Part shown: positions 17,615 to 34,071 of the stretch, piece after piece
Numbering within the stretch: the first letter of the stretch is position 1
Layout of the letters: each line of letters opens with the position of its first letter
Virus record (IMG/VR): IMGVR_UViG_3300018421_000096
Location: 1-34,071 of that record
Strand: one strand, 5' to 3'
From: a virus
DNA: 34,071 bases
Made by a program: the position numbers and the translations under genes
The notes under the pieces: generated by a model
Database searches by the model: none
What the model saw: the letters and a program-made list of their open reading frames with translations, nothing else
What the model was told of the DNA's origin: nothing

Positions 17615-20600
17615 TTATCCTAGATCGTTTCTGAGAGCACCTGTGTCTCTATGACCAAATGTTCTTCTTTGAATTGTTGGATAAGTGCTAAGTCCTGAGA
17701 AAGTCAATCCAGTTACACCAATTGATATTGGTGAAGAAGATCTTGAAATTCCAGCAAGACGACCCCAAGAGAATCTACCACAAGTAACAAATCCTGTTGC
17801 AGATATTTCTGATGTGGTTGTTGTTGAAAGAATGTCAGCGACAAACTCAGCATTCGCCGCTGCAGATGAGAATGATCTAACTATGTAAACATTATCTGCA
17901 AATGTTGTTCCAACACCAACTATAGCGGCATCTTGAGCATTATTGATTGAAGTTACACCAGAACCAACTATTGTATCTACAATCAAAATTGGATATCCAT
18001 TGTTAAGGTCGGTATATTGTGATGAAGATGAAGCATTCAAGAAGAACTTAAGACCCAGAGTTCCATTTCCACCACTACCTGTTGTTGTAGTAATTCCAGT
18101 AACAATTCCACTTCCACCCTGAACAATATCAATTGAGGTTACATTTTCATAAGAAATATTTGTTGTTGGTGCCAATACTTTAGGAGCATTTGTATGCGTA
18201 TATCCAAATCCAGGATTTGTAATATTTGCAGTTCCGCTTAAAGATCCATTAGATACTGGAATTGTTGCAGAAGCTGTAGTTCCAATGCCAACTCCAATTA
18301 TTTTTGGTGCTGCGATAGAAACTGTAATTGCACTACCCACATATCCAGATCCACCATTACTGATGGTCAGAGCACTAATGGTTCCAGCAGCAGATACGGT
18401 AGCAGTTATTGCTGCAGAAACTGGATCACTAGATCCTTGATTTATGATTAGTGCATCTACACTACTAATGACAATTGAAGATTCATTTTCTTCATAGTTG
18501 AAGAATTGGGCATCATCTACAAATATTTCAGTTGATGCATCTGTAACATCTCCAATAATTCTTGCTGTTGGATAAACCAATGATTCAATGGATGGTCTTG
18601 ACTTATAAACATAATCGTTGTTTATAAATCTATCAACTTTCTGTTTGATCCAATTAAATGGTCTTGCGGTGTTTTCACTAATTCCAATACCAGTATACAA
18701 ATTAGTTTCAAGTAAATCCGAAGTAACAATACCAACAACTGTTCTTGGCTGTTGTGAATTTACACCACCATGTTTGATGAGTTGAATCTCATCACCTTCT
18801 TTGATAGTCTCAATAACTTCTACTGAGAAACTATCAGTTCCACGTGTACCTCTATAGAAGAAGATTGAAACTTTATCTTCTGGTCTTGGTGCTTCACTAA
18901 ACTCAAATGATGTTCCACCCGAGAAATTATAATGTGATCCAGGTTCCTGAACAACTCCGTTTATGAAGATTAAGAGAACAGCATTTAAATCTATGTCTGG
19001 ATCTCCATCCCCAACTTCGAAACTTAAAAGTTCACCCTGATAATACAGTGGGAATCTAGTTCTAACTCCATTTTGTAAAGTTGTAACTGGATCGATGAAA
19101 TCGAGTTCACCAAAAGTCCATGAAGAGAATGAATCTGAGAAAGTATCAAGAACTTCAAGTTCAAAATCTGCAAGTGGTGAAGCAAGACCTTTTGCTGTAA
19201 CTAGTCCAACTGGTTTAAATTTATCTCCAGGTTTGAATCCATAACCAGGTCTAGAAATCCTAAAGGATGATACTTCAAATAAAGTGGATCCAATACCAGT
19301 TGTTGATACTGCACCAACATCTACTGTTAAGAGTAATCCCTCACCAGTATCTGTAGTAGGTCCTATTCCACGACGCGATACTCCAACAATTGGAAGATTC
19401 TCATATGATGGTGCTGGAATACTAATGATTGGGTCTGTATATCCAGATCCACCAGAATTAACTGTAAAGATCAAAGTTCCACCAACACCAACTGTTGCGG
19501 ATACATCAGCACCACTTCCAGGCGATGCTCCATATTCGGTAACAGCAATCGATACAGAACCTCTATATCCAGATCCGTGAATATCTGTAGATCCTAAACC
19601 AACAGATTGAATGACTCCACCCGATACAACTACAGTTACTGCAGCGCCAACTAAAGGTGCAAATCCAAGACCTGGTGTTGATCCAAGAGAAACAATAACT
19701 CCACCTCTTGGTAATTGATTTTTGTTTACATCCTCAGGTGAAAGTACTAACTGACCATTCGACGATGTGATTCCAGTGAATACAACACTTGAAACTCCAA
19801 CAGAACCTTCTTCGAAGTTGTAGTTATTTCCAACGTTATTTGATGTTATTGGGGTTTGGAATATATCATTAATAAACAGAACTCCACTTCCAGTTTCAAT
19901 CCCAGTTGTATTAGCACCACCAACAGTTACTGTATAGGTTTTTCCTATACCAGTAAATGATTTTGAAATACTGTCAAATACTTGGTTTGTAGCATAATCT
20001 TGTCTCAGATAAACTCTTCCACCAAAGGATGATTTTACCTTAGTTAGATTATCTAATCCAATTAATTGTCCAAGATCTCCTCTTGGGGGTTCGGTAAAGT
20101 GAATTTTATTCTTGACAATATTAAAGGATCCAACATAAACCCTAGCATTATCACCATCACTATGACTTGTTGCAGAAGATCCAACAAATCCTCTTTCAAC
20201 TTTAACCAGGTTGAAACTACCAGTACCACTAATTGGACCTACAGCAGTTGTTCCAATACCAACACCCTCGACTTTGACATATTCATCATTAACTTTCATT
20301 ATATCTCCAGGAAGAATGGAGGAAATACCAGTCAGTGAGAAGAATGTAGATCCTACCGATATCGTTCCACCATTGTCAGTTAAATCGTAATTAATTGGTG
20401 TGAATGCAATTGGACTTTGTACAACACCATTGATAGAAATAAGAGACTTGCTAAGTTTCTTATACATTTCAAGTGTATGTGCATTTCCACCACCAGCATC
20501 AGTGAACGTTACTGCAGTGCCAGCATTTGCATTTGCTTCACTGGTTGCTAGTTTGAATTGATTTGAATTTACACGTATCGCATATACTTCCGTAGACAAT

Positions 20601-23600
20601 CCAACGGAAGATCCTGCAATATTCATTACAGTCCCAGCAACTCCAGTAAATGTCGAGCCAGCATCATAGATCAATCTTTCTCCAGTATTGAAGAAGTGGT
20701 CGTCAATTGTAAATATTCCTGTTCCCTGATCAAGAACGGATGAAGATGCAGGATTGAATGTTTTGGCAAAAACTGGGATGGTATCGTGTGTTAAATCAAA
20801 TGCTGTTTTATTGCTTCTATCTCCATTTCTAGAATTATATGCAGAAACAATTAGTTCTTCATTTACTGGACCATATGTCAAGATGTCGGCAACATTATTC
20901 AAATCACTTTCTGATTGAATAATCTCACTGTATGTTTGAACAACAATTGATTGGTCGCTAGAGATTTCAGGATCTGGATAGAATTTCAATATAAAATCTG
21001 ATCCTGATAACTCTGATCCAAAAGTACCAATTCCACTTGTACTTCCAATAGACAAGAATGGATACTGCATTGTGTATGCGGATGTATCATCATGTGTTAC
21101 AAGTAACTGGTGGAGTGCAGTAGTGTTTCCATAACTTACTCGTGCAACAGACTTAATTGTTGTTACATCAGTCTTAGAAACACTAATTGGGGTAGAAATT
21201 CCTGTAGTTGTTTCAAAATTAGTCTGAAGTCTTGCTGAATTTTCTGTTCCTTCTGGTTGTGAACCAGAAAGGAATCTATATGTCCCAACACCAACAGATG
21301 TTGTGCCAAATCCAACTGCTATAGTTCTAACTAACACTGCATCCGACTCAGTGCTGTTAGTATAATCTAATGTAATAACACCAGAATTAATACTTCCTTT
21401 AAAGGTTCCTATAAAATTATCGGACAATTGTGTAGATTCATCATTGTCAAAATAATATTCCGATATAAATGTGTCAGATCCATCATGATCTAAGTAAAGT
21501 TCGACGATAGTTCTATCTTTTGAAGTGGTATTGAAAATTTCAACATTGGCAAAAATACCTTCAGTTTTATCAACTTCTCTAGAAACCAGAGAAACAGTTG
21601 TGCCAACTCCAACAGTAGTTGTTACTCCAACAAGATCAACAAATCCAATTGTTCTAGTATTAATTCCAGTTAGGGTGGTGTTGAATTGATTTTTCAATAT
21701 TTTGATATCATAATCAGTATTAAAAGACTCTAGTGGCACAAATCTCAATGCAAGGTCGTTTGTATTTGCATCAACATCCCCCAACTTTAAAGTAGTATCA
21801 ACAGTATTATTACTTGTTCTTCCACTAGTAATAGATGCTTTTTCTACAGTTAGTAAATTATTATTCTGTGATGGAACAGTAATAACTTCCAACACTTGAG
21901 TTTCTAATCCATCAGTGCTCTTAATTTGGATAAGATATCTACCATATCCATCAGTGATAGAAATGGAATCGAGATCTACATATAAATCGGTTTCACCATC
22001 ATTGTTTGAGAATAAATCTTTGATGTCATCTAAAATTAAAACTCTATTTGTGGAGCATTTGATATAATCTGCTAATTTTTTATTTTCAAGTTTAACAAAT
22101 TTTGATGATCCATTTTGAGTATCTACATCAAGTCCAAAGTCAAAATATTTTACAACATCAACTCTGTTATCGCTAATAATATCGATAAGTGCAATACTTG
22201 TAGCGGCAGCAGTAGTACCGACTCCTACTCTAGTTGTACTTGTAATTCCAGTATCTGAGAAATTTTTGAGTCCTGAAGTATGTAAAAGTCTATTTACAGG
22301 ATCAATCATCTCATCATATGTTATTGGACTCTTGATAGTGTAGGAAAGATTTTGATAATAATCATTATCTGGGGTTACTTGCAAATCAGAGTTTAAGGTT
22401 CCAATATCATTTACCCAACCCCTATTTGTATCAAGAGAATAATTGATGTTGAAGAATCCTTTATTGTTTTCAATAGATTCTACAGTTGCCTCTGTTCCTG
22501 ATTTCTTACCAATTAACTTTTCACCAACAGAGAGTTCATAAGATCCATATACTTTAAGAAGATCATTTCTATTGTCAGTGACTATGAGGTCTCTTTCTAC
22601 ATAATTTGAATTTTCCAATGTTAAAATCTTTTCAGAATCATGGAACTCTAAAGAAGACTGGATAACATCAAATGTGGGATAATTTGACTGCTTAATCAAA
22701 TTGGCATAAGCATTTTGATTGGTGGCTGCAACTCCAGCATTAGTTGCAATGCCGGACATGTCAAATTCAACTGTTGCGGGATTTGTATTTGTATATTTTG
22801 TTATTGGGAAGAATTTATATTGATAATTTGCAGAATTGAAACCATCACCATCCGTTCCAATTTTCTGTATTCCCTCAACAAATACACTATCTCCAACAGC
22901 AAATGGAGCAGTACTGAACCCTAAAATAGGAGTTTGTAGTGTACATGTAACTATTCCAGCTGGAGAAGATACGCAACTTTGAATTCCAACACCATTAGTG
23001 TTGTTTATCGCATATACAACGTTTTCTATTTCATTCAGTCCTTTTGGTGATTCTAAAATATTTACGGCAACAATAGAAGTTCCCTGAAGAACTGCCTCAA
23101 GTGTGCCAGACTCAACAGAAAGTCCAGTAGTTGGATCTACGATTATCAGATCTGGTGCAGAAATATAATTTTGTCCACCAGAAGTTACATTGATTGACGA
23201 TATTGTATTTCTATTACTTAAACGAACATTTGGTGATATGTATGCCTCAGGACTTAATGTCTTATCAGCAGAAAAATCAAATCCTTGATCATCAATAATA
23301 ACTTCTTTAATTTTACCAATCGTCTGTGATTTTGGAACAATATCAGCATTTACACCATCTGTAGATGCAATACTAACAAATTCTGGTAATTTTTTATAGT
23401 TAGATCCACCAGAAGTAATCCTTAGTGAATTTACACCGCCTTTTGCTGTTACTGATGTAGTTGAATATTTTGCCTGGGCAAATTCAGTAGAAGCATAAGA
23501 AAGTTTTTCTGGAACTTCATTCAGTGCTATTTGGAAAGTGGTTGATCCAATACCAGAAATTGAGTAAGTTCCAGTATAAGAACTATCATCAAATAATATC

Positions 23601-26600
23601 TCTGAATAATTTTTTACAGTTGTATCAGAACTACTAATATATCCAGATTTTTCTAAAGTATAATATAGTTTTGCTGGCAATTTGTCGCTGTAGTTTAAGG
23701 TGACAGTTCCAACACCAGTGGTTCCTATACCAATTGTTCCAACGCCAATTACACTTGCTGTTGTAATTGTTCCGCCAACAGAAACTAATTCATTTCTAAA
23801 TTCTCTATCATAGAAGATTTTAAAATTATATCCACTCAATGAAGTATCTGTTACATTGAATACTAAATTATTATTTCTAATAACTGGTATTTGTGGATTA
23901 ACTTTTGATAATTCATGCCCAGCACCACCAGTAGAAGCGAAACTTACGATAGTTGGTGGGATTGAAATAGAATCATTATATGTTTCAGATAACTGAATCT
24001 TATCATCGTCTACTCTATAGACATAATATGATCCTGTTTCAAGACCAGAAATAATCAAATCCGAAGAATTATAGAAAACTTTTTCTCCAGTTTCAAATCC
24101 GTGTGATGTAATTGTTAATTCACTTGTTGCTGTTCCAACAGAAGTTGAAGTGAATCCCACGGGGTTGACTAACAGTTTACCCTCATCTGCATTATATTTT
24201 ACAAAAATACCAGTAGATGTTCCAATCCCAACGGAAAGATTTGGTTTAAGTGTCAGTGAGATTAAATCACCATCACTCAATCCATGATCTGTTGAAACAG
24301 AAACTGTAGATGCAATTTTTTGTACTTTTGCAGTAACCTGATTGAAGGTAGATTCTAATGAATATTTGAAGTCGTCACTATCACCATTTGCAGTAAATGA
24401 TCTAAAGTATAATCCGTTTGTCGTTACTCCAACTTGTGTTGAAAGACCAATGTAATCTCTACCCTTATTAACTACGTATAAAGTCTCAGAAGTTGTAGAT
24501 GGAATATTGAATGTAGTGCTAGTTTCAGTGTTTGAAACTGAAATTTTCGAAGCTCCACTTACTGTTCTCAGTATAACTTGTTGATTTGTCTTAAATGGAT
24601 GATCTGGAAGATATATGCTTTGAGTTGGGACTGATATAATTTTTGCATTCAATCCAACAGTATATACATTAGATATTCCAATTCCAGTGGTAGATCCTAT
24701 ACCGACTTGTTGTTGAGGATTAAAGTATACTTTTTGATTTAAATTTGAATCAAAATCAGTAGTATTAATCTTCAATATCAGATTGTTAGTAACTTCTGTA
24801 ATTTTAGTTGATACTGTGTGTCCAGCACCAGATAGTCCTCTAGCAACTCTTAATACTTTGGTATCTTGGAATACATTTAAAACAGAAAGTCTTTCTGTTC
24901 CTATTGCTACTGTAGATCCAACCGAAATAATTTTAGGAGTATTGGAAACATAGATATCAGTTACAAATCCAGAGACTGAATTGCTGGAAACTGGTCCAGA
25001 TAGATATAAAATTTCAGAAGAAACCCCAACAGTATGTTTGTTCGTCAAACCTTTAATATAAGTTGAAACTCCCGATACAGAAACTTTGTTTCCATCCTGA
25101 ATTGTATGTGGTTCTGTTGTTTGAATTAGTACTTCAGTATCACTAGATCTTAATACTACAGAATCAGAAAATGTTTCAACACTTGTAGATACATTTACAA
25201 TATCTTTTCCAGTAATGGATTGAACATAAGCACCAAGACCACCACCATTAGTATCTGTATTATCAAACGATGCTAGATCATACACCGAATAACCAGATCC
25301 AGGTTCTCTAATATAAAAATCATCAACAGAACCTTTTGTTATTGATTGTACCGTAGCTCTTTGAATGAGAATTTTATTTGGTTCTGAAATAAAATCATTT
25401 GATGAATATGAATCATCAGTTCTATATGGGAAGGTATTTCTTCTTAATTTTGAATCATTAAAGTTGAAAGTTTGATCGACATTTTGGGATACTGGTAATG
25501 ATCTGTACGTATCTCCAACAAAATATGGGAATTGTGGAATTAGTGAACTTGATACTGGATCAGTAGTTATTCCTGCAAAATATGCATAAACTCCATTGGG
25601 AAACTCTGGGGTTTTTGCAAATCTTCCATTATGCTCATCTAAACTTCCAGAATTATCAAACTTATAATCATCAGTAAAGAATCCATCAGAAAATCCAGAT
25701 GGTCTATCAACTACACTAGATGTAGATCTAATATAACCAGATTGTAACTGTACAATAGTTGAATTACTATCAAGTGGATCTAAATGTCCATATGGACCAT
25801 AGATTGGATTTCCATCATGTGCCCATCCAATAATTGGTGAGTGGGATGCTCCATTATCCGAGAAAACAGAATTTCCAATTTCTGTACTATATCCAACAAA
25901 ACTATATTTTAATCCCTGGGAATTTTCAGATACTAGTTCTTGTCCAAATCTACTATAATTGTCTACGGTTAAGTCTCTTACAGATGCTCTAGCATTTGCA
26001 TTTGAACCGACAGATTTTGCGCTGACTGTGGTATTTGATGCTCCGTACCCAACTCCACCATTTAAGACAACTACTGAGCTTACTTTTTGGTTTGAAATAA
26101 CTGCTCTTAGTTTTGCACCAACTCCAGATCCAGAAACAATAAGATCTGGTGCACTAGTATATTCTGAACCGCCGTTTGTAATTTGAACACTTGCTATTTT
26201 TCCATCAATGACGTTTGGTTTTAATTCAACATCTTTTCCAGTTTTGAAGGAAACATTAGGTCTCTTATGGAAGTTAAGAATGGTTGATCCATATCCAGTT
26301 CCAGTTTCATAAAGGTAGAGATCTACAATTTCACCTCTAATCTGTGGAGTTGCAGTTATAACTCCAGTAACACCATCAAATTCTGCATTAATCGTTATAG
26401 TAATATCTTTGTATGCAAAATTTTGATATCCAGATCCAGTTGAAGTTAACTTAACAAATTTTCTTCTACTGTAGTTTTCACTAAATTGGGTGGTTCCTAC
26501 ACCAGGATCACTCAATCTAAACGTATTATCATCAAGTTTTAAAACATAGTGCTCATCTCCACTAGTCAATCCTCCAATTTCAGTTCCATCCGTAGTATAA

Positions 26601-29518
26601 GTGATAATATCACCATCATTGAATCCATGGTTTTCAAAGATAACGGTATTATAAACCGTAGAGATTCCTGTAGGTTTTACAATCAGTTTTCTGTTTTCAT
26701 AACCACTACCAGGACTAATAACTTTGATTTCCTTTAAAGTATTTTTTCCATCAAATAATCTAAATTTATGAATCCCTTGTGTTGTAGATGTTGTAAATCC
26801 AACCGTGTTAATACCACTAGTATAATCATTAAAAGTTTGATACAACTTGATTGTGGATGTATTAACTATTTCTGCAAAATATGCCGACCCACTGTGTAGA
26901 GTTGAAGTTTGATCTACATTACTTCCATTAAAAGTACCTATGCCAATTTCAGAATTTCCATTTTTATTGTATACAATTTTATCACCATTTCTTAAATTGT
27001 GATTTTTTAAGAAGGTAATTGTGTCATCATTAATATCAATTCCTCCACCACCTGTCGATTCTCTTGCATCAAATTCTACCTCACGGTATCTTGTTTCTAA
27101 AATAGGTTCTAAAATAGCACCGTTACCATTACCACCACTAATAGTAATTGACTGAACACGTCTAATATCAAAATCTTGTGGGTCTACATGTACAGACTTT
27201 ACAGAACCCCTCACAACTGGTCTAATTAATGCGGTAGTTCCACCACTAACTACTGAATTTCCTAAAGTTACAGTTGGTGGATTTATGACATCATAGTCAG
27301 ATCCAGCATTTAACAGATCAACCTTTCCTACAGGACCATAATAAATTTTATCAAATGATTTATAGTTTGAAATTTCAACACCATTAATCAATAATCCAAC
27401 GCTTCCGGGCAGAGTTTTTACGCCTGTTCCGTTTTTAATATTTTGTCCTGATGGGAATTTACTTAAAAGTGCTTGGGGATATATTAAACCTGTTTTTTGT
27501 CTTGCTAATGTAAAAGTGTGAGATCCACTTGAATTTGTTGATGAAAACTCAATTGGAGTATCACTTTCTATAAATGAGGGTGATTCATATAGTTTAATTT
27601 TATTATTTTGAGAAAGAACCTTAACGTAATAAGTTCTTTCAGATAATCCATCAAGGGTATCAATTTCAGCAGTGTACTGTACTTCATCACCAGTTACAAA
27701 TGGTACACTTGAACTAAAAGATAATACTGAGTATTTTAATGTTGATGTGTTATATCCTTCAAGGGCACTTCCACTAGCAGAACTAATCGTTGCTTTCTTT
27801 ACATCTTTTGTGATTTGATATGATGGTAAAGAGTTTGACGCTACATAAAAATTCTCATCATCCTCATTATACAGATTTTGAACATCACTAGTCAAACCAT
27901 CATAAGCAACTGGAATCGAAGAACTTGATGCTGTTTTTAATTTTCTTCTAATTGTATAATCTACATCAGCAGATGGGGAAAATCCTCCAAGATTGCCAAG
28001 TGTTATTTGGCTATTAGATACGTTAATAGATAAAACAGTAACGTTCTCTCTAGAAATTGTCTGAGTAGATCCTTGAAGAATATCTACAGTATCTCCAACT
28101 CTAAGACTGGACTTATCAATAGATGATTTTAATGTGAAAGTCGAACCAGATATAGAGTCAACTTCAAATCTTACTGTAGTATTATAAATCCAAGAATTTG
28201 CAAAAATTTGCTTATACTTCTTATCAGTCTCTGGATTTTTGATTATTTCTCCAACGTTCTTAACATATAACGTCTGACCCTCAGATACTAAGGATGGATC
28301 ACCAACTTTTTCAAATTCTGAGAGTACTCCACCTACTCTAATTTCTACTTTCTTGGTAGTATCTCCATTTTCATATCCAAAGAAAACTTCACTAGTTCTA
28401 ATCTCTGAAGATACACCAATCTCTTCATCAATTCCAGTACAGTTTAAAAACTGATTTACAGTTTTTTCTCCATAGGAAATTATATTATTTCCAGACACTA
28501 AAGTTCCAGTTGTTCCAAATCCAACCGTAGAATCTACAGTAATAACTGAAGAACCAACAGATACCTTAGTGATCGACTTTACTTTTGGTTGAACTGCAAA
28601 AGTACCTTCAACAGTGCTTCTATCGGTATATCCAACAAATAAGTTTAACTTATAATATGTACTAATTCCAGATCTCGTAAAGATTTCTACTTCAGAAACA
28701 GACGCTCTAGTATTTGCATCAGCAGAATTTATAATGGTTTGTCCAACTAATTTGTTTGGATCTCCAGAAATTCTTTCAGCAACTACAACTTCCCTCTTTA
28801 AAAACTCTGCACTTGATGGTTTAATTAGGTATCTTTCAAGATCTACTACAGTTGGAGTAACTCCATAAAGAACATTAAAGAGAATTTTGAAAGATTCTTT
28901 TGTTCCTTTTGCTTTATATAAAGATCCAGATTCTTTAATAAAATTATTTACATCAAGATTTGATACAAAATCAGTATCTTCTAAACCTGGAGTGAAAGTA
29001 TACTTTAATTTCTTATAAAATTCTTTTAAAAATAAAGCACTTAAATTCTGTACAGTATCTCCTGCAGTGTGTGCTTCTTGAGATGTTTTATTAAATACTA
29101 ATTCTTCAGAATTTAAATCAGTTCTATATGTTTGAATTCCACTAAAACCTCTAATACATCCAGTAAAGGTGTTTGTGGTGATCCCAGTGTAGGTAATGAT
29201 TTCATCACCAATCCTGAACAAACCATACTCTTTAGGAAATCCCTTAGTTGAGTAGACCTGTACAGTATCGGTAGTTGAAGAAATACTAGAATATAAAGTA
29301 GTCTGACCAGAAATTACTTCCTGTGTCAGATTATCTAACTGTAAATACTGATCTAAGTTTTCAGCAACGTCCGATGGACCGCCTTGGTACTCTTGAGAAA
29401 TATAATATTGCTTTAAAAAATCAACAGACTTTGGACTTTCAGAACGTAAAAATTCGGGAAGTTGGCTGTCAATGATTTGCTGAACCTTTACCCTCTGCTC
29501 AAACCCAGTTTGTATCAT
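17615..29518 (-). CDS. Giant repeat-rich structural protein in the gp7 position, 3967 aa, with YHYH-like region
   Basis: An uninterrupted 3,967-codon gene between gp6 and gp8, the place of T4 gene 7 (1,032 residues, baseplate wedge initiator). Residues 1-250 form a distinctive head (QRVKVQQIIDSQLPEFLRSE, KSVDFLKQYYISQEYQGG, ALFLKEFYKKLKYTF, KGTKESFKILFNVLYGVTPT). The rest is beta-repeat: more than ten GxGY units, several 'HGF--GD-v-Y' units, three 'INGVVQ-P' units (near 18.95, 19.87 and 20.43 kb), and a YHYH-like segment near 25.8 kb (IIGWAHDGNPIYGPYGHLDP). The C-terminus is RRTFGHRDTGALRNDLG. It begins one base after gp6 ends, with AGAGG upstream. Identity as a gp7 equivalent rests on position; similarity to T4 gp7 was not tested. 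Confidence 0.85.
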   Translation of the reverse strand: MIQTGFEQRVKVQQIIDSQLPEFLRSESPKSVDFLKQYYISQEYQGGPSDVAENLDQYLQLDNLTQEVISGQTTLYSSISSTTDTVQVYSTKGFPKEYGLFRIGDEIITYTGITTNTFTGCIRGFSGIQTYRTDLNSEELVFNKTSQEAHTAGDTVQNLSALFLKEFYKKLKYTFTPGLEDTDFVSNLDVNNFIKESGSLYKAKGTKESFKILFNVLYGVTPTVVDLERYLIKPSSAEFLKREVVVAERISGDPNKLVGQTIINSADANTRASVSEVEIFTRSGISTYYKLNLFVGYTDRSTVEGTFAVQPKVKSITKVSVGSSVITVDSTVGFGTTGTLVSGNNIISYGEKTVNQFLNCTGIDEEIGVSSEIRTSEVFFGYENGDTTKKVEIRVGGVLSEFEKVGDPSLVSEGQTLYVKNVGEIIKNPETDKKYKQIFANSWIYNTTVRFEVDSISGSTFTLKSSIDKSSLRVGDTVDILQGSTQTISRENVTVLSINVSNSQITLGNLGGFSPSADVDYTIRRKLKTASSSSIPVAYDGLTSDVQNLYNEDDENFYVASNSLPSYQITKDVKKATISSASGSALEGYNTSTLKYSVLSFSSSVPFVTGDEVQYTAEIDTLDGLSERTYYVKVLSQNNKIKLYESPSFIESDTPIEFSSTNSSGSHTFTLARQKTGLIYPQALLSKFPSGQNIKNGTGVKTLPGSVGLLINGVEISNYKSFDKIYYGPVGKVDLLNAGSDYDVINPPTVTLGNSVVSGGTTALIRPVVRGSVKSVHVDPQDFDIRRVQSITISGGNGNGAILEPILETRYREVEFDARESTGGGGIDINDDTITFLKNHNLRNGDKIVYNKNGNSEIGIGTFNGSNVDQTSTLHSGSAYFAEIVNTSTIKLYQTFNDYTSGINTVGFTTSTTQGIHKFRLFDGKNTLKEIKVISPGSGYENRKLIVKPTGISTVYNTVIFENHGFNDGDIITYTTDGTEIGGLTSGDEHYVLKLDDNTFRLSDPGVGTTQFSENYSRRKFVKLTSTGSGYQNFAYKDITITINAEFDGVTGVITATPQIRGEIVDLYLYETGTGYGSTILNFHKRPNVSFKTGKDVELKPNVIDGKIASVQITNGGSEYTSAPDLIVSGSGVGAKLRAVISNQKVSSVVVLNGGVGYGASNTTVSAKSVGSNANARASVRDLTVDNYSRFGQELVSENSQGLKYSFVGYSTEIGNSVFSDNGASHSPIIGWAHDGNPIYGPYGHLDPLDSNSTIVQLQSGYIRSTSSVVDRPSGFSDGFFTDDYKFDNSGSLDEHNGRFAKTPEFPNGVYAYFAGITTDPVSSSLIPQFPYFVGDTYRSLPVSQNVDQTFNFNDSKLRRNTFPYRTDDSYSSNDFISEPNKILIQRATVQSITKGSVDDFYIREPGSGYSVYDLASFDNTDTNGGGLGAYVQSITGKDIVNVSTSVETFSDSVVLRSSDTEVLIQTTEPHTIQDGNKVSVSGVSTYIKGLTNKHTVGVSSEILYLSGPVSSNSVSGFVTDIYVSNTPKIISVGSTVAIGTERLSVLNVFQDTKVLRVARGLSGAGHTVSTKITEVTNNLILKINTTDFDSNLNQKVYFNPQQQVGIGSTTGIGISNVYTVGLNAKIISVPTQSIYLPDHPFKTNQQVILRTVSGASKISVSNTETSTTFNIPSTTSETLYVVNKGRDYIGLSTQVGVTTNGLYFRSFTANGDSDDFKYSLESTFNQVTAKVQKIASTVSVSTDHGLSDGDLISLTLKPNLSVGIGTSTGIFVKYNADEGKLLVNPVGFTSTSVGTATSELTITSHGFETGEKVFYNSSDLIISGLETGSYYVYRVDDDKIQLSETYNDSISIPPTIVSFASTGGAGHELSKVNPQIPVIRNNNLVFNVTDTSLSGYNFKIFYDREFRNELVSVGGTITTASVIGVGTIGIGTTGVGTVTLNYSDKLPAKLYYTLEKSGYISSSDTTVKNYSEILFDDSSYTGTYSISGIGSTTFQIALNEVPEKLSYASTEFAQAKYSTTSVTAKGGVNSLRITSGGSNYKKLPEFVSIASTDGVNADIVPKSQTIGKIKEVIIDDQGFDFSADKTLSPEAYISPNVRLSNRNTISSINVTSGGQNYISAPDLIIVDPTTGLSVESGTLEAVLQGTSIVAVNILESPKGLNEIENVVYAINNTNGVGIQSCVSSPAGIVTCTLQTPILGFSTAPFAVGDSVFVEGIQKIGTDGDGFNSANYQYKFFPITKYTNTNPATVEFDMSGIATNAGVAATNQNAYANLIKQSNYPTFDVIQSSLEFHDSEKILTLENSNYVERDLIVTDNRNDLLKVYGSYELSVGEKLIGKKSGTEATVESIENNKGFFNINYSLDTNRGWVNDIGTLNSDLQVTPDNDYYQNLSYTIKSPITYDEMIDPVNRLLHTSGLKNFSDTGITSTTRVGVGTTAAATSIALIDIISDNRVDVVKYFDFGLDVDTQNGSSKFVKLENKKLADYIKCSTNRVLILDDIKDLFSNNDGETDLYVDLDSISITDGYGRYLIQIKSTDGLETQVLEVITVPSQNNNLLTVEKASITSGRTSNNTVDTTLKLGDVDANTNDLALRFVPLESFNTDYDIKILKNQFNTTLTGINTRTIGFVDLVGVTTTVGVGTTVSLVSREVDKTEGIFANVEIFNTTSKDRTIVELYLDHDGSDTFISEYYFDNDESTQLSDNFIGTFKGSINSGVITLDYTNSTESDAVLVRTIAVGFGTTSVGVGTYRFLSGSQPEGTENSARLQTNFETTTGISTPISVSKTDVTTIKSVARVSYGNTTALHQLLVTHDDTSAYTMQYPFLSIGSTSGIGTFGSELSGSDFILKFYPDPEISSDQSIVVQTYSEIIQSESDLNNVADILTYGPVNEELIVSAYNSRNGDRSNKTAFDLTHDTIPVFAKTFNPASSSVLDQGTGIFTIDDHFFNTGERLIYDAGSTFTGVAGTVMNIAGSSVGLSTEVYAIRVNSNQFKLATSEANANAGTAVTFTDAGGGNAHTLEMYKKLSKSLISINGVVQSPIAFTPINYDLTDNGGTISVGSTFFSLTGISSILPGDIMKVNDEYVKVEGVGIGTTAVGPISGTGSFNLVKVERGFVGSSATSHSDGDNARVYVGSFNIVKNKIHFTEPPRGDLGQLIGLDNLTKVKSSFGGRVYLRQDYATNQVFDSISKSFTGIGKTYTVTVGGANTTGIETGSGVLFINDIFQTPITSNNVGNNYNFEEGSVGVSSVVFTGITSSNGQLVLSPEDVNKNQLPRGGVIVSLGSTPGLGFAPLVGAAVTVVVSGGVIQSVGLGSTDIHGSGYRGSVSIAVTEYGASPGSGADVSATVGVGGTLIFTVNSGGSGYTDPIISIPAPSYENLPIVGVSRRGIGPTTDTGEGLLLTVDVGAVSTTGIGSTLFEVSSFRISRPGYGFKPGDKFKPVGLVTAKGLASPLADFELEVLDTFSDSFSSWTFGELDFIDPVTTLQNGVRTRFPLYYQGELLSFEVGDGDPDIDLNAVLLIFINGVVQEPGSHYNFSGGTSFEFSEAPRPEDKVSIFFYRGTRGTDSFSVEVIETIKEGDEIQLIKHGGVNSQQPRTVVGIVTSDLLETNLYTGIGISENTARPFNWIKQKVDRFINNDYVYKSRPSIESLVYPTARIIGDVTDASTEIFVDDAQFFNYEENESSIVISSVDALIINQGSSDPVSAAITATVSAAGTISALTISNGGSGYVGSAITVSIAAPKIIGVGIGTTASATIPVSNGSLSGTANITNPGFGYTHTNAPKVLAPTTNISYENVTSIDIVQGGSGIVTGITTTTGSGGNGTLGLKFFLNASSSSQYTDLNNGYPILIVDTIVGSGVTSINNAQDAAIVGVGTTFADNVYIVRSFSSAAANAEFVADILSTTTTSEISATGFVTCGRFSWGRLAGISRSSSPISIGVTGLTFSGLSTYPTIQRRTFGHRDTGALRNDLG
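25780..25870 (-). other. YHYH-like domain segment within the giant protein
   Basis: Encodes SPIIGWAHDGNPIYGPYGHL around residues 1215-1245, preceded by FVGYSTEIGN and followed by an SGYIRSTSSVVDRPSGFSDG stretch. The 'G-a-DG-PIYGPYG' core is typical of YHYH proteins. The domain's biochemical role is not settled. Confidence 0.6.
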
Positions 29519-32217: not shown

Positions 32218-32373
32218 TCATCCTTTGCCTTGTCCGCGATACTTCTTACGCGCTTTATTGCGAGAAGAGGCGGCATATTTGGTTCCCATGCCGTCGCCTT
32301 GACGAGACTTCTTCGGAGGTCCGGGGCTATAAGACGTTTTGCTACCAGAGACACCTACTTTTGATTTTGCCAT
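32218..32373 (-). CDS. Small basic Lys/Gly/Ser-rich protein, 51 aa
   Basis: Read from the minus strand: MAKSKVGVSGSKTSYSPGPP, then KKSRQGDGMGTKYAASSRNK and ARKKYRGQGKG. It is highly basic and lacks hydrophobic core residues, so it is probably disordered and may bind nucleic acid or be an internal/structural peptide. The start follows the restored-frame stop of the upstream gene by two bases, and a strong terminator follows the TGA, so it is the last gene of its transcript. It resembles small conserved proteins of T4-like cyanophages by my recollection. Function is unknown. Confidence 0.8.
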   Translation of the reverse strand: MAKSKVGVSGSKTSYSPGPPKKSRQGDGMGTKYAASSRNKARKKYRGQGKG

Positions 32374-32539
32374 GTTTATGTAGAACTAGAGATTGTTGTT
32401 TTAATTTCATGAGGTTGTGGAGAACCTGTCTGGTAAAATTCGATTGACAGATTCTCCATGAGGCCAAGTATTCTTCCTCTGTGAGATTACTATGAACCTC
32501 AGAGTCTTTTATGAATACTGTGTACCGATCGTTAGACAT
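32342..32539 (-). CDS. Small protein with an apparent -1 frameshift (1-nt deletion)
   Basis: The ATG at 32539 overlaps the glycosyltransferase stop as TGATG. The frame reads MSNDRYTVFIKDSEVHSNLT EEEY and then continues into an odd Trp/Gln/His-rich tail that overruns the start of the next gene. Shifting -1 near 32461-32467 (bases TTGGCCT) gives a natural continuation, LMENLSIEFYQTGSPQPHEI then KTTISSST. That frame stops at 32376, two bases before the next ATG. The intended product is probably about 54 residues. No slippery heptamer is visible, so a real 1-nt deletion or a sequencing/assembly error is likelier than programmed shifting. Function is unknown. Confidence 0.72.
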   Translation of the reverse strand: MSNDRYTVFIKDSEVHSNLTEEEYLASWRICQSNFTRQVLHNLMKLKQQSLVLHKHGKIKSRCLW

Positions 32540-33294
32540 CAAATAATCCTTGTCTTTTCGTGACCAACGCGGATGCGAGGATCACACCAAATTTCAAAGC
32601 CTGCTTCCTTTGCATCCAAACAGAAACTCACATCTTCTCCACACATGTCTTGAACCTCACCAGATTCAAAGATTTGCATTTTGGGAGCAAACCATGGATA
32701 CTTCATCTCAGGATGCTCAAAGACGCCATGCTTGATCATCAACCATCCAAAACCTGCATAGTCAACAGTGAATGGCTTTTTACGCTTCGACATGGTTTCC
32801 AGCGTTTCATGATTCATGACTCCACCATTATTGCGGAAATCATCCTCATCCATCCAGTGTGCAACAGAGGACGTTTGCCCGTCTTCCGTACAATACCAAC
32901 CAGAAGAAATATCTTGGTCAAGAAGAATCAGTTGATAGAACTTCTCAGTGTTGAATACGATGTCACTATCAATCCACAATTGATAGTCGTATTTCAGCTT
33001 GCCGTCCCAGGGGATTTGATCAGGTCCTCTGAGTACGTTTGCTCCAAGACACTTACAACGGGCAAAGTTGACCATTGAAGAATAATCTTGAGAAATTTGA
33101 ATACTTGCACCATTCTGCACGAGATCAAAGCAGAGTTGTACAAAGTTCTTCAGAAATGTATATGAAACTCCCCGACCAGGCAAGCAGAACACGATTGCTT
33201 TACCACGAATCATTTCGCGTGCTTTAGCGTAATCGAATTCTGCCTCCTTGGTAACTTCAGGAGCTTTTGCTTTAACAGTAAATCCTTTAGCCAT
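32539..33294 (-). CDS. Glycosyltransferase-like protein (GT-A type, DxD motif)
   Basis: A 251-residue protein with the layout of a small nucleotide-sugar glycosyltransferase. After a Lys-rich leader (residues 1-30) comes a first beta strand (AIVFCLPGRGVSYTF, 33-47). The metal-binding Asp-Ser-Asp follows at 109-111 in YDYQLWIDSDIVF. Further on are an acceptor-side YAGFGWLMIKHG (179-190) and the late acidic/His block CGEDVSFCLDAKEAGFEIW (218-236) with DPRIRVGH (238-245), typical of GT-A folds. No signal peptide or membrane helix is seen. It may modify phage DNA, capsid or host glycans; substrate is unknown. A sigma70-type promoter precedes it, and the frameshifted gene overlaps its stop. Confidence 0.82.
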   Translation of the reverse strand: MAKGFTVKAKAPEVTKEAEFDYAKAREMIRGKAIVFCLPGRGVSYTFLKNFVQLCFDLVQNGASIQISQDYSSMVNFARCKCLGANVLRGPDQIPWDGKLKYDYQLWIDSDIVFNTEKFYQLILLDQDISSGWYCTEDGQTSSVAHWMDEDDFRNNGGVMNHETLETMSKRKKPFTVDYAGFGWLMIKHGVFEHPEMKYPWFAPKMQIFESGEVQDMCGEDVSFCLDAKEAGFEIWCDPRIRVGHEKTRII

Positions 33295-33317: not shown

Positions 33318-33346
33318 ATCATACAGTATTATGTAGAGGTTGTCAA
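33318..33346 (-). promoter_or_regulatory. Sigma70-type promoter TTGACA-N17-TATGAT
   Basis: On the minus strand the -35 is TTGACA (33346-33341), the spacer is exactly 17 bases, and the -10 is TATGAT (33323-33318), one mismatch from consensus. Transcription would start near 33311, about 17 bases before the glycosyltransferase ATG. The -35 overlaps the stop codon of the AbrB-like gene. It resembles a host-polymerase early promoter rather than a late one. Confidence 0.72.
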
Positions 33347-33522
33347 TCGGCGTCCTTTACTTCGGTTACTACGATACAATCGCCTTCAACTTCCATATTT
33401 ACTACGGTCCCCTCATACCACCCAAAGTCGTTCAGTATCCACTCAGGAATATTCACATAATACTCCCCAGTAATTGGATCGACCTCTACAGTCGTAAAAT
33501 TTTTATCCGGATTTTTTTGCAT
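33343..33522 (-). CDS. AbrB/MazE-like small protein, 59 aa
   Basis: Read from the minus strand: MQKNPDKNFTTVEVDPITGE, then YYVNIPEWILNDFGWYEGTV and VNMEVEGDCIVVTEVKDAD. The order 'V-pitGe-yv-IPewil---gwyeGt-v--eveGd-ivv' is the swapped-hairpin pattern of AbrB/MazE/SpoVT domains, which bind DNA as dimers and often act as transition regulators or antitoxins. Only the single ~45-residue domain is present. Upstream spacing to ATG is CCTGAG, a poor ribosome site. A regulator or antitoxin role is inferred from fold pattern, not demonstrated. Confidence 0.75.
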   Translation of the reverse strand: MQKNPDKNFTTVEVDPITGEYYVNIPEWILNDFGWYEGTVVNMEVEGDCIVVTEVKDAD

Positions 33523-33634
33523 CTCAGGTAAAACAGTTTTTCATTTTTGTTTTATATAGAACATTTGCGCTTTATAAAGAGCTGGCGAAAGCAAGACTTT
33601 ATAGCTTACAGGGACCCATGGATTTTATATACAC

Positions 33635-33667
33635 GCCCCCAGGCGGCGGACCCCCACGACGGGGGGC
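33635..33667 (-). repeat. G/C-only hairpins in the spacer after the HicA-like gene
   Basis: CCCCC (33651-33655) pairs with GGGGG (33661-33665) across a 5-base loop. GCCCCC (33635-33640) can alternatively pair with the same G-run (33662-33667). The two structures are mutually exclusive. There is no T-tract, so a classical terminator is uncertain. Confidence 0.55.
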
Positions 33668-33721
33668 ACTGCCAAATCACGAACCAATGGACTGCCAAGG
33701 GCGCACGGGTCGTTGGTTCGT
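33668..33721. repeat. Inverted and direct repeats just downstream of the HicA-like gene
   Basis: ACGAACCAA (33679-33687) and TTGGTTCGT (33713-33721) are perfect 9-base inverted arms with a 25-base loop. The right arm touches the stop codon of the HicA-like gene. ACTGCCAA occurs twice in direct orientation (33668-33675 and 33691-33698), 23 bases apart. This could be a terminator stem or a protein-binding site. Confidence 0.6.
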
Positions 33722-33945
33722 TATGCTGCCGCCTTCGCTGCCATCATGAGAGCGTAGAACTTACGGAACTCCGACGACATACCAGGGGAGAGGGTTGAGC
33801 GTCCTTTGCTGCCATGGGAGGGAAGGTGGAAGGTTTGGGGAAGGTCAGGGTGGGTCACCTTGTCGTGACTGCCACCCGACCGAATGACGCCGCCTGCCTT
33901 GTGAATCAAGCGGCGGGCGTCACGAACTTTGATCGGGGATGCCAT
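33721..33945 (-). CDS. HicA-like mRNA-interferase-family protein, 74 aa
   Basis: The sequence has the HicA layout. An N-terminal helix (VRDARRLIHKAGG, residues 7-19) is followed by VIRSGGSHDKVTHP, whose Gly-Ser-His (25-27) holds the family's catalytic His. Next is a beta strand with HLPSHGSKGRS, matching the 'vP-H---el--G' segment, and a C-terminal helix (SSEFRKFYALMMAAKAAA). HicA toxins bind RNA with a dsRBD-like fold and cleave mRNA; length is usual. The ATG lies nine bases after the stop of the preceding partial gene, so both are probably co-transcribed. No HicB-type antitoxin is visible within the window. Codon use is GC-rich, unlike the phage genes. It might be a toxin, a decoy or a repurposed RNA-binding protein. 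Confidence 0.75.
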   Translation of the reverse strand: MASPIKVRDARRLIHKAGGVIRSGGSHDKVTHPDLPQTFHLPSHGSKGRSTLSPGMSSEFRKFYALMMAAKAAA

Positions 33946-33954
33946 GGAAGAATC

Positions 33955-34071
33955 CTACCAGAGGATGGGCGTACCGTCAAAGTCGGTCGCGGTGCCCTGC
34001 TGCTCATCGGCGGCGATGCTCTCCAGGATCTCCAGGAGTTGGGCACCGTCAGCGGCACGGTTGAGAAGGGA
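33955..34071 (-). CDS. C-terminus of an unidentified gene (cut by right edge)
   Basis: The last 38 codons of a minus-strand gene entering from the right edge: SLLNRAADGAQLLEILESIA, then ADEQQGTATDFDGTPILW and a TAG. The visible part is an amphipathic helix followed by an acidic tail ending in a hydrophobic ILW. It is GC-rich, like the HicA-like gene it immediately precedes. The fragment does not look like a HicB C-terminus (no HTH or ribbon-helix-helix), but too little is present to name it. Confidence 0.7.
   Translation of the reverse strand, partial: SLLNRAADGAQLLEILESIAADEQQGTATDFDGTPILW

What the first reader, a model, noticed from the sequence alone, without database searches (positions are those of the whole stretch)
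33721..34071. GC-rich HicA-like gene with an unidentified upstream partner in a phage genome
The HicA pattern (GGSHDKVTHP, HLPSHGSKGRS) is clear and has a co-directional partner nine bases upstream, yet the visible C-terminus of the partner is not HicB-like. Base composition differs sharply from the rest of the window. This may be a horizontally acquired toxin with a non-canonical antitoxin, or a phage effector acting on host mRNA.
Basis: partly seen in the sequence, partly recalled or inferred. Interest (0 to 1): 0.62.

Follow-up and report, generated by a model that had tools for sequence, protein, structure and literature searches.

The report
Lone HicA-like gene in cyanophage island
A virus of picocyanobacteria carries, in a small GC-rich cluster of swappable mini-genes, a protein with the shape and active-site histidine of the bacterial RNA-cutting toxin HicA but without any recognisable antitoxin, which suggests a weapon against the host cell rather than a toxin-antitoxin pair.

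Summary
ORF 33721-33945 (-), 74 aa, is a real, strongly conserved gene. It matches PHROG_18430 "toxin" (1e-15) and, below cut-off, Pfam HicA (23.4 of 27 bits). Its AlphaFold model is alpha-beta-beta-beta-alpha, and Foldseek's best matches are solved HicAs. The HicA-critical histidine (His27) is kept in all family members examined, and dN/dS is about 0.09.

It is not a chimeric join: a second IMG/VR contig is 99.94% identical across the junction, and dozens of other viral contigs carry the gene.

The "partner" is now readable in full: a 45-aa, probably two-helix protein. It is not HicB-like and not a dedicated antitoxin. It occurs without hicA in 11 contigs, hicA occurs without it in others, and other genes take its place. 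No HicB (PF15919, PF05534) was found in the complete S-RIM8 and S-RIM50 genomes or in a 236-kb relative, while the same PF15919 search finds the small HicB of phage PaV-LD.

The GC shift marks an island of small promoter-bearing genes next to the baseplate genes, not one recent import.

Best reading: an antitoxin-less HicA-fold protein of T4-like cyanophages, probably a host-directed RNase. Catalysis is inferred, not shown.

The parts
33721..33945 (-). hicA-like gene, 74 aa, pI 11.0, net charge about +8; HicA-fold protein
33865..33867 (-). codon of His27, aligned with the active-site histidine of HicA; Gly25 two residues before it
   Evidence: role of H24/G22 in B. pseudomallei HicA from PMC3969222
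33952..33960 (-). TGGTAGGAT, extended -10-like element overlapping the stop codon of the upstream gene, 6 nt before the hicA ATG (in L010 and L011 the same element sits 22 nt before it)
   Evidence: consensus match only
33955..34071 (-). C-terminal 38 codons of the upstream gene; full gene in L002:2155-2292 (45 aa, MTRDLATSLLNRAADGAQLLEILESIAADEQQGTATDFDGTPILW), predicted two helices, not HicB-like, not obligatorily linked to hicA
33635..33667 (.). inverted repeat GCCCCC...GGGGGGC after hicA, terminator-like end of the GC-rich island
   Evidence: read directly
33343..33522 (-). phrog_661 protein, weakly AbrB/SymE-like (E about 0.05-0.1), next gene downstream; present in most relatives without hicA, so not a dedicated antitoxin
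32539..33294 (-). phrog_1574 glycosyltransferase-like gene, conserved AT-rich flank of the island

Best explanation
The gene encodes a HicA-fold, strongly basic protein that keeps the HicA active-site histidine and glycine. It belongs to a cyanophage-specific clade (PHROG_18430) that travels without HicB. It sits in a GC-rich island of small, same-strand, mostly separately promoted genes whose membership changes from phage to phage, next to the baseplate genes of T4-like cyanophages. The most likely action is expression early in infection, from its own or a neighbour's promoter, and cleavage or binding of host RNA to help shut off host gene expression; a lytic phage needs no antitoxin for that. 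Shown here: fold, conservation, purifying selection, absence of recognisable HicB and of any constant neighbour, island context. Inferred: nuclease activity, host-RNA target, timing.
For: Fold and family. His27, Gly25 and Pro42 kept across the aligned family. Purifying selection. No HicB by PF15919 or PF05534 in S-RIM8, S-RIM50 and the 236-kb relative G001, nor by the PaV-LD HicB sequence; positive control: PF15919 detects PaV-LD HicB. Upstream and downstream neighbours vary, and no other family lies near hicA in all 23 groups compared. Island: GC 0.59-0.62 for about 3 kb against 0.30-0.36 beside it in G001. 12 of 27 hicA copies have their own -10-like element at 18-40 nt (1.3 expected). A phage HicA with the matching histidine is the most toxic protein tested of mycobacteriophage Adephagia (PMC11373665).
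Against: No experiment. The Pfam score is below cut-off and covers only positions 2-42; the C-terminal loop and helix (GSKGRPTLSPGM...) differ from canonical HicA. Adephagia HicA without its antitoxin harms the phage itself (PMC11373665), so a lone active HicA needs timing or target choice to be tolerated. An antitoxin outside the HicB families, or an RNA antitoxin, cannot be excluded.
Confidence: 0.55

Rival explanations
1. Toxin-antitoxin pair with an unrecognised antitoxin, the upstream two-helix gene (MTRDLA family) or another small island gene.
For: The upstream gene is 9 bp away and co-directional; the MTRDLA family is the nearest recognised upstream gene in about half of the hicA loci.
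Against: MTRDLA genes occur without hicA in 11 of 14 island contigs, and hicA occurs without them in L005/L006/L009, L076 and S-RIM8. The predicted structure is two helices, not the HicB partial RNase H fold (modest confidence). No family is constant near hicA.
Confidence: 0.12
2. Decoy or counter-defence protein: the HicA-like protein occupies host HicB antitoxins or otherwise interferes with host toxin-antitoxin defence, without needing RNase activity.
For: Freshwater and coastal Synechococcus are reported to carry more toxin-antitoxin systems than open-ocean strains, and cyanophage S-CREM1 encodes lone antitoxins (PMC9964418).
Against: Binding HicB would free the host's own toxin, an odd aim for a phage; the catalytic histidine is kept, which a decoy would not require. 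Host HicAB content was not tested.
Confidence: 0.15
3. RNA-binding protein of HicA/dsRBD fold without nuclease activity, regulating phage or host RNA.
For: Strongly basic (pI 11.0), dsRBD-like fold; the C-terminal motif GSKGRPTLSPGM is conserved and not canonical.
Against: His27 and the Gly before it are the residues needed for HicA toxicity (PMC3969222) and are kept.
Confidence: 0.15
4. Chimeric assembly or bacterial DNA joined to a phage contig.
For: Sharp GC change at the contig end.
Against: Independent contig L002 is 99.94% identical across the junction; the same junction recurs in dozens of viral contigs.
Confidence: 0.01

Closest known systems
PHROG_18430 'toxin' / Synechococcus phage S-RIM8 toxin (YP_007518140.1), also S-RIM50 (unannotated ORF L023:3983-4213)
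   Same: Same protein family, 50% identity over residues 4-63; same active-site pattern GGxHxKVTHP and TLSPGM motif; also no HicB in the genome
   Different: In the marine phages the gene lies near a helicase and a DNA methyltransferase and is not GC-rich (GC3 0.38-0.39); here it lies in the GC-rich island beside gp25
HicA of HicAB toxin-antitoxin systems (E. coli, B. pseudomallei, Y. pestis HicA3; PF07927)
   Same: a-b-b-b-a fold, active-site histidine, size, basic charge
   Different: No HicB; sub-threshold Pfam score; different loop and second helix
Planktothrix phage PaV-LD HicAB (class 1 of Gerdes 2024, PMC10865869)
   Same: Cyanophage HicA of 75 aa, alignable with E=2.9e-5
   Different: PaV-LD has a 72-aa HicB overlapping hicA; the phages here have none that could be found
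Mycobacteriophage Adephagia gp91/gp90 HicAB (PMC11373665)
   Same: Phage HicA with corresponding Gly/His; toxic when expressed
   Different: Temperate phage, needs its HicB antitoxin for normal growth
Hyperplastic region and ORFanage of marine cyanomyoviruses (Millard 2009 as cited in PMC2984593; S-PM2 ORFanage, PMC4503421)
   Same: Variable block of genes next to structural genes; loosely conserved content and order
   Different: PMC2984593 places the published region between g15 and g18; this island lies between phrog_455 (DUF6267) and phrog_661/phrog_1574, upstream of gp25

Membership tests
HicA fold/superfamily | alpha-beta-beta-beta-alpha dsRBD-like fold | tested here: met
   AlphaFold mean pLDDT 85; Foldseek matches 6g26, 4p78, 4c26, 6hpb; E-values weak (0.015-0.39), as expected for so small a protein
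HicA fold/superfamily | Active-site histidine with Gly two residues before | tested here: met
   G25-x-H27 in the window; His in every family member listed; aligned with E. coli HicA and PaV-LD HicA. L078 and L079 vary at one glycine of the motif
HicA fold/superfamily | Pfam PF07927 above gathering score | tested here: not met
   23.4 bits against 27; relatives 13.9-24.8
HicA fold/superfamily | mRNA cleavage and growth inhibition | not testable with these tools
   needs expression
HicAB type II toxin-antitoxin system | HicB antitoxin gene beside hicA | tested here: not met
   PF15919 and PF05534 absent in complete S-RIM8 and S-RIM50 and in G001; positive control found
HicAB type II toxin-antitoxin system | Stable two-gene operon | tested here: not met
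   neighbours vary
PHROG_18430 'toxin' | Profile match over most of the protein | tested here: met
   E=1.4e-15, residues 3-64, profile 6-67 of 76

The most novel reading that the evidence does not exclude
A clade of lytic cyanophages uses a lone HicA as a host-takeover ribonuclease, carried as one exchangeable cassette in a rotating island of small promoter-bearing genes. In the window's phage it lies directly behind a gene whose leader resembles a conserved pseudoknot RNA, so its dose may be gated by that RNA.
Probability: 0.25. Interest if true: 0.6.

Novelty: new variant of a known kind. Interest (0 to 1): 0.38.

Why it matters
Lone toxins of toxin-antitoxin families in lytic phages are candidates for host shut-off proteins, and most small genes in cyanophage variable regions have no function assigned. 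Here one has a clear fold, a testable catalytic residue and cultured relatives (S-RIM8, S-RIM50) in which it could be deleted. It would also show that HicA can be used offensively by a virus rather than only in defence or addiction modules.

Tried and rejected
Chimeric join: rejected. Upstream gene as HicB or dedicated antitoxin: rejected. phrog_661 (weakly AbrB-like) as antitoxin: rejected, present in most relatives without hicA and not near S-RIM8 hicA. HicB elsewhere in the genome: not found. Bacterial source: two scans of genome contigs and one of plasmids gave no relative. The leader of the upstream gene as a known glutamine-riboswitch-type RNA (a 'downstream-peptide' motif recalled from memory): no Rfam match. 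Sequence search against PDB: nothing meaningful. A first broad pseudoknot scan was too permissive and was replaced by a stricter one. A2 held a wrongly framed row and was also dropped; only A3 and later alignments are used. (no hicA in L159 and four other records) had no positive control in the same call and is given little weight.

Full report
WHAT IS THERE. The window is a 34-kb linear IMG/VR virus record from a T4-like cyanophage. On the - strand it carries baseplate wedge genes gp25 and gp6, a phrog_1574 glycosyltransferase-like gene and a phrog_661 gene. At its right end, in a stretch of about 54-60% GC, is a complete 74-aa ORF (33721-33945) and the last 38 codons of a second one, 9 bp upstream.

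IS IT A GENE. Yes. 20 IMG/VR relatives at 73-100% identity were found with the protein alone, 56 loci with a profile, and 18 phage records (S-RIM8 group, KBS-M-1A, S-RIM50) at 50%. Over a 60-codon core the median dN/dS is 0.086 in 349 pairs, and third codon positions carry most variation.

IS IT A JOIN ARTEFACT. No. L002, another assembly, is 99.94% identical over 5,348 bases up to the window's last base and extends 2.2 kb beyond. The same junction between the GC-rich island and phrog_661/phrog_1574 recurs in most relatives long enough to show it.

WHAT PROTEIN. Pfam HicA matches at 23.4 bits (cut-off 27), positions 2-42 only. PHROG_18430, labelled toxin, matches at 1.4e-15. The AlphaFold model from 13 homologues has mean pLDDT 85 and the HicA order of elements. 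Foldseek's first four matches are HicAs (6g26 twice, 4p78, 4c26), and E. coli HicA (6hpb) is sixth. Profile alignments put GGSHDK on GSNHLK of E. coli HicA and on GKGSHER of PaV-LD HicA (E=2.9e-5). In B. pseudomallei HicA the histidine and the glycine two residues before it are needed for toxicity (PMC3969222). Lys, Gly, His27, Pro42 and a second Lys are invariant in an alignment running from the window to E. coli HicA. The protein has pI 11.0 and charge about +8. The part that departs from canonical HicA is the beta3-alpha2 loop and second helix, with the clade's own motif GSKGRPTLSPGM.

THE PARTNER. L002 gives it in full: MTRDLATSLLNRAADGAQLLEILESIAADEQQGTATDFDGTPILW. It has no Pfam or PHROG match. 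The model is two helices at modest confidence (mean pLDDT 71), not the HicB fold. In 80 loci centred on phrog_1574, 14 have this family and 3 have hicA, all three with it. Conversely hicA occurs without it in the L005/L006/L009 lineage, in L076 and in the marine phages. Directly upstream of hicA lie, in different phages, this family, a DUF7249 gene, the MTRYDV family (phrog_17176) or others. No family other than hicA is near hicA in all 23 groups compared. So there is no dedicated partner in cis.

IS THERE A HICB ANYWHERE. PF15919 and PF05534 find nothing in the complete genomes of S-RIM8 and S-RIM50 or in the 236-kb record G001 and smaller relatives. The PaV-LD HicB sequence finds nothing in these either. 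The same PF15919 search does find the 72-aa HicB of PaV-LD, so small HicBs of that kind would have been seen. A more divergent or unrelated antitoxin would not.

THE ISLAND. In G001 about 3 kb has GC 0.59-0.62 beside regions of 0.30-0.36. It consists of recurring small families (DUF7249, MTRDLA, MTRYDV, MRYN, EVRYQ, MTYAQI, SDL, hicA) in a loosely conserved order with members missing or present. 68 of 106 island gene starts have a -10-like hexamer 18-40 nt upstream, against 5.6 expected from shuffles, and few have a Shine-Dalgarno-like sequence. 12 of 27 hicA copies have such an element at that distance; others, including the window's, follow an upstream gene by 2-9 bp. In the window a TGGTAGGAT element overlaps the upstream stop codon only 6 nt before the hicA ATG; in L010 and L011 the same element sits 22 nt before it. 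hicA GC3 is 0.60-0.76 in the freshwater-type relatives while phrog_1574 is 0.26-0.42; the marine S-RIM8 copy is not GC-rich. The GC signature is therefore a shared, long-kept trait of the island and not evidence of a recent import of this gene. Why it stays GC-rich is not explained here.

MECHANISM. The kept active site, charge, selection and absence of an antitoxin point to an RNA-directed effector used during lytic infection. A phage HicA is strongly toxic in Mycobacterium when its HicB is missing, and also harms that temperate phage (PMC11373665), so timing or target choice must matter. Catalysis, target and timing are inferred.

KNOWN OR NEW. The protein family is known as PHROG_18430, and S-RIM8's copy is annotated 'toxin'. 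I found no paper on it in the searches made. The absence of HicB, the shuffled island and the clade's own C-terminal motif are the additions made here.

Noticed in passing
L040:810, L064:1794, L016:3993 and 4519, L017:4309, L063:2331, L122:1042, L151:3323 and others; leader of the window's upstream gene lies just outside the window (L002 about 2090-2155): Compact H-type pseudoknot RNA leader before MTRDLA and MRYN island genes, e.g. (GGG)aac[GGCAG]cg(CCC)taaaga[CTGCC] and (AGTC)[CTGAGTTA]t(GACT)ctaaac[TAACTCAG]; both stems change with pairing kept; about 17 distinct + strand sites, 3 on the - strand, 1.8 per shuffled set; no Rfam match. The copy before the window's upstream gene fits less well (its second stem needs a bulge). 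Possible riboswitch, translational operator or protein-binding leader.
   Followed up: partly
islands in L002-L021 and L038-L075: Most small island genes carry their own -10-like element and a 20-28 nt C/A-rich leader, mostly without Shine-Dalgarno, often after a GC hairpin and a CTGGCACA-like stretch.
   Followed up: partly
window 32463-32464: One-base deletion relative to L002 that changes the frame of the small ORF 32342-32542; natural variant or assembly error.
   Followed up: no
window 33595-33620: Conserved border sequence (GACTTTATAGCTTACAGGGACCCATGG) between the island and phrog_661, seen also in several relatives.
   Followed up: no
S-RIM50 NC_031242 41050-41280 (L023:3983-4213): hicA-like ORF identical in protein to the S-RIM8 'toxin' is not annotated; an overlapping frame is annotated instead.
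   Followed up: yes
window 17615-29518: Single 3967-aa ORF next to gp6; the syntenic relative in G001 is 2787 aa.
   Followed up: no
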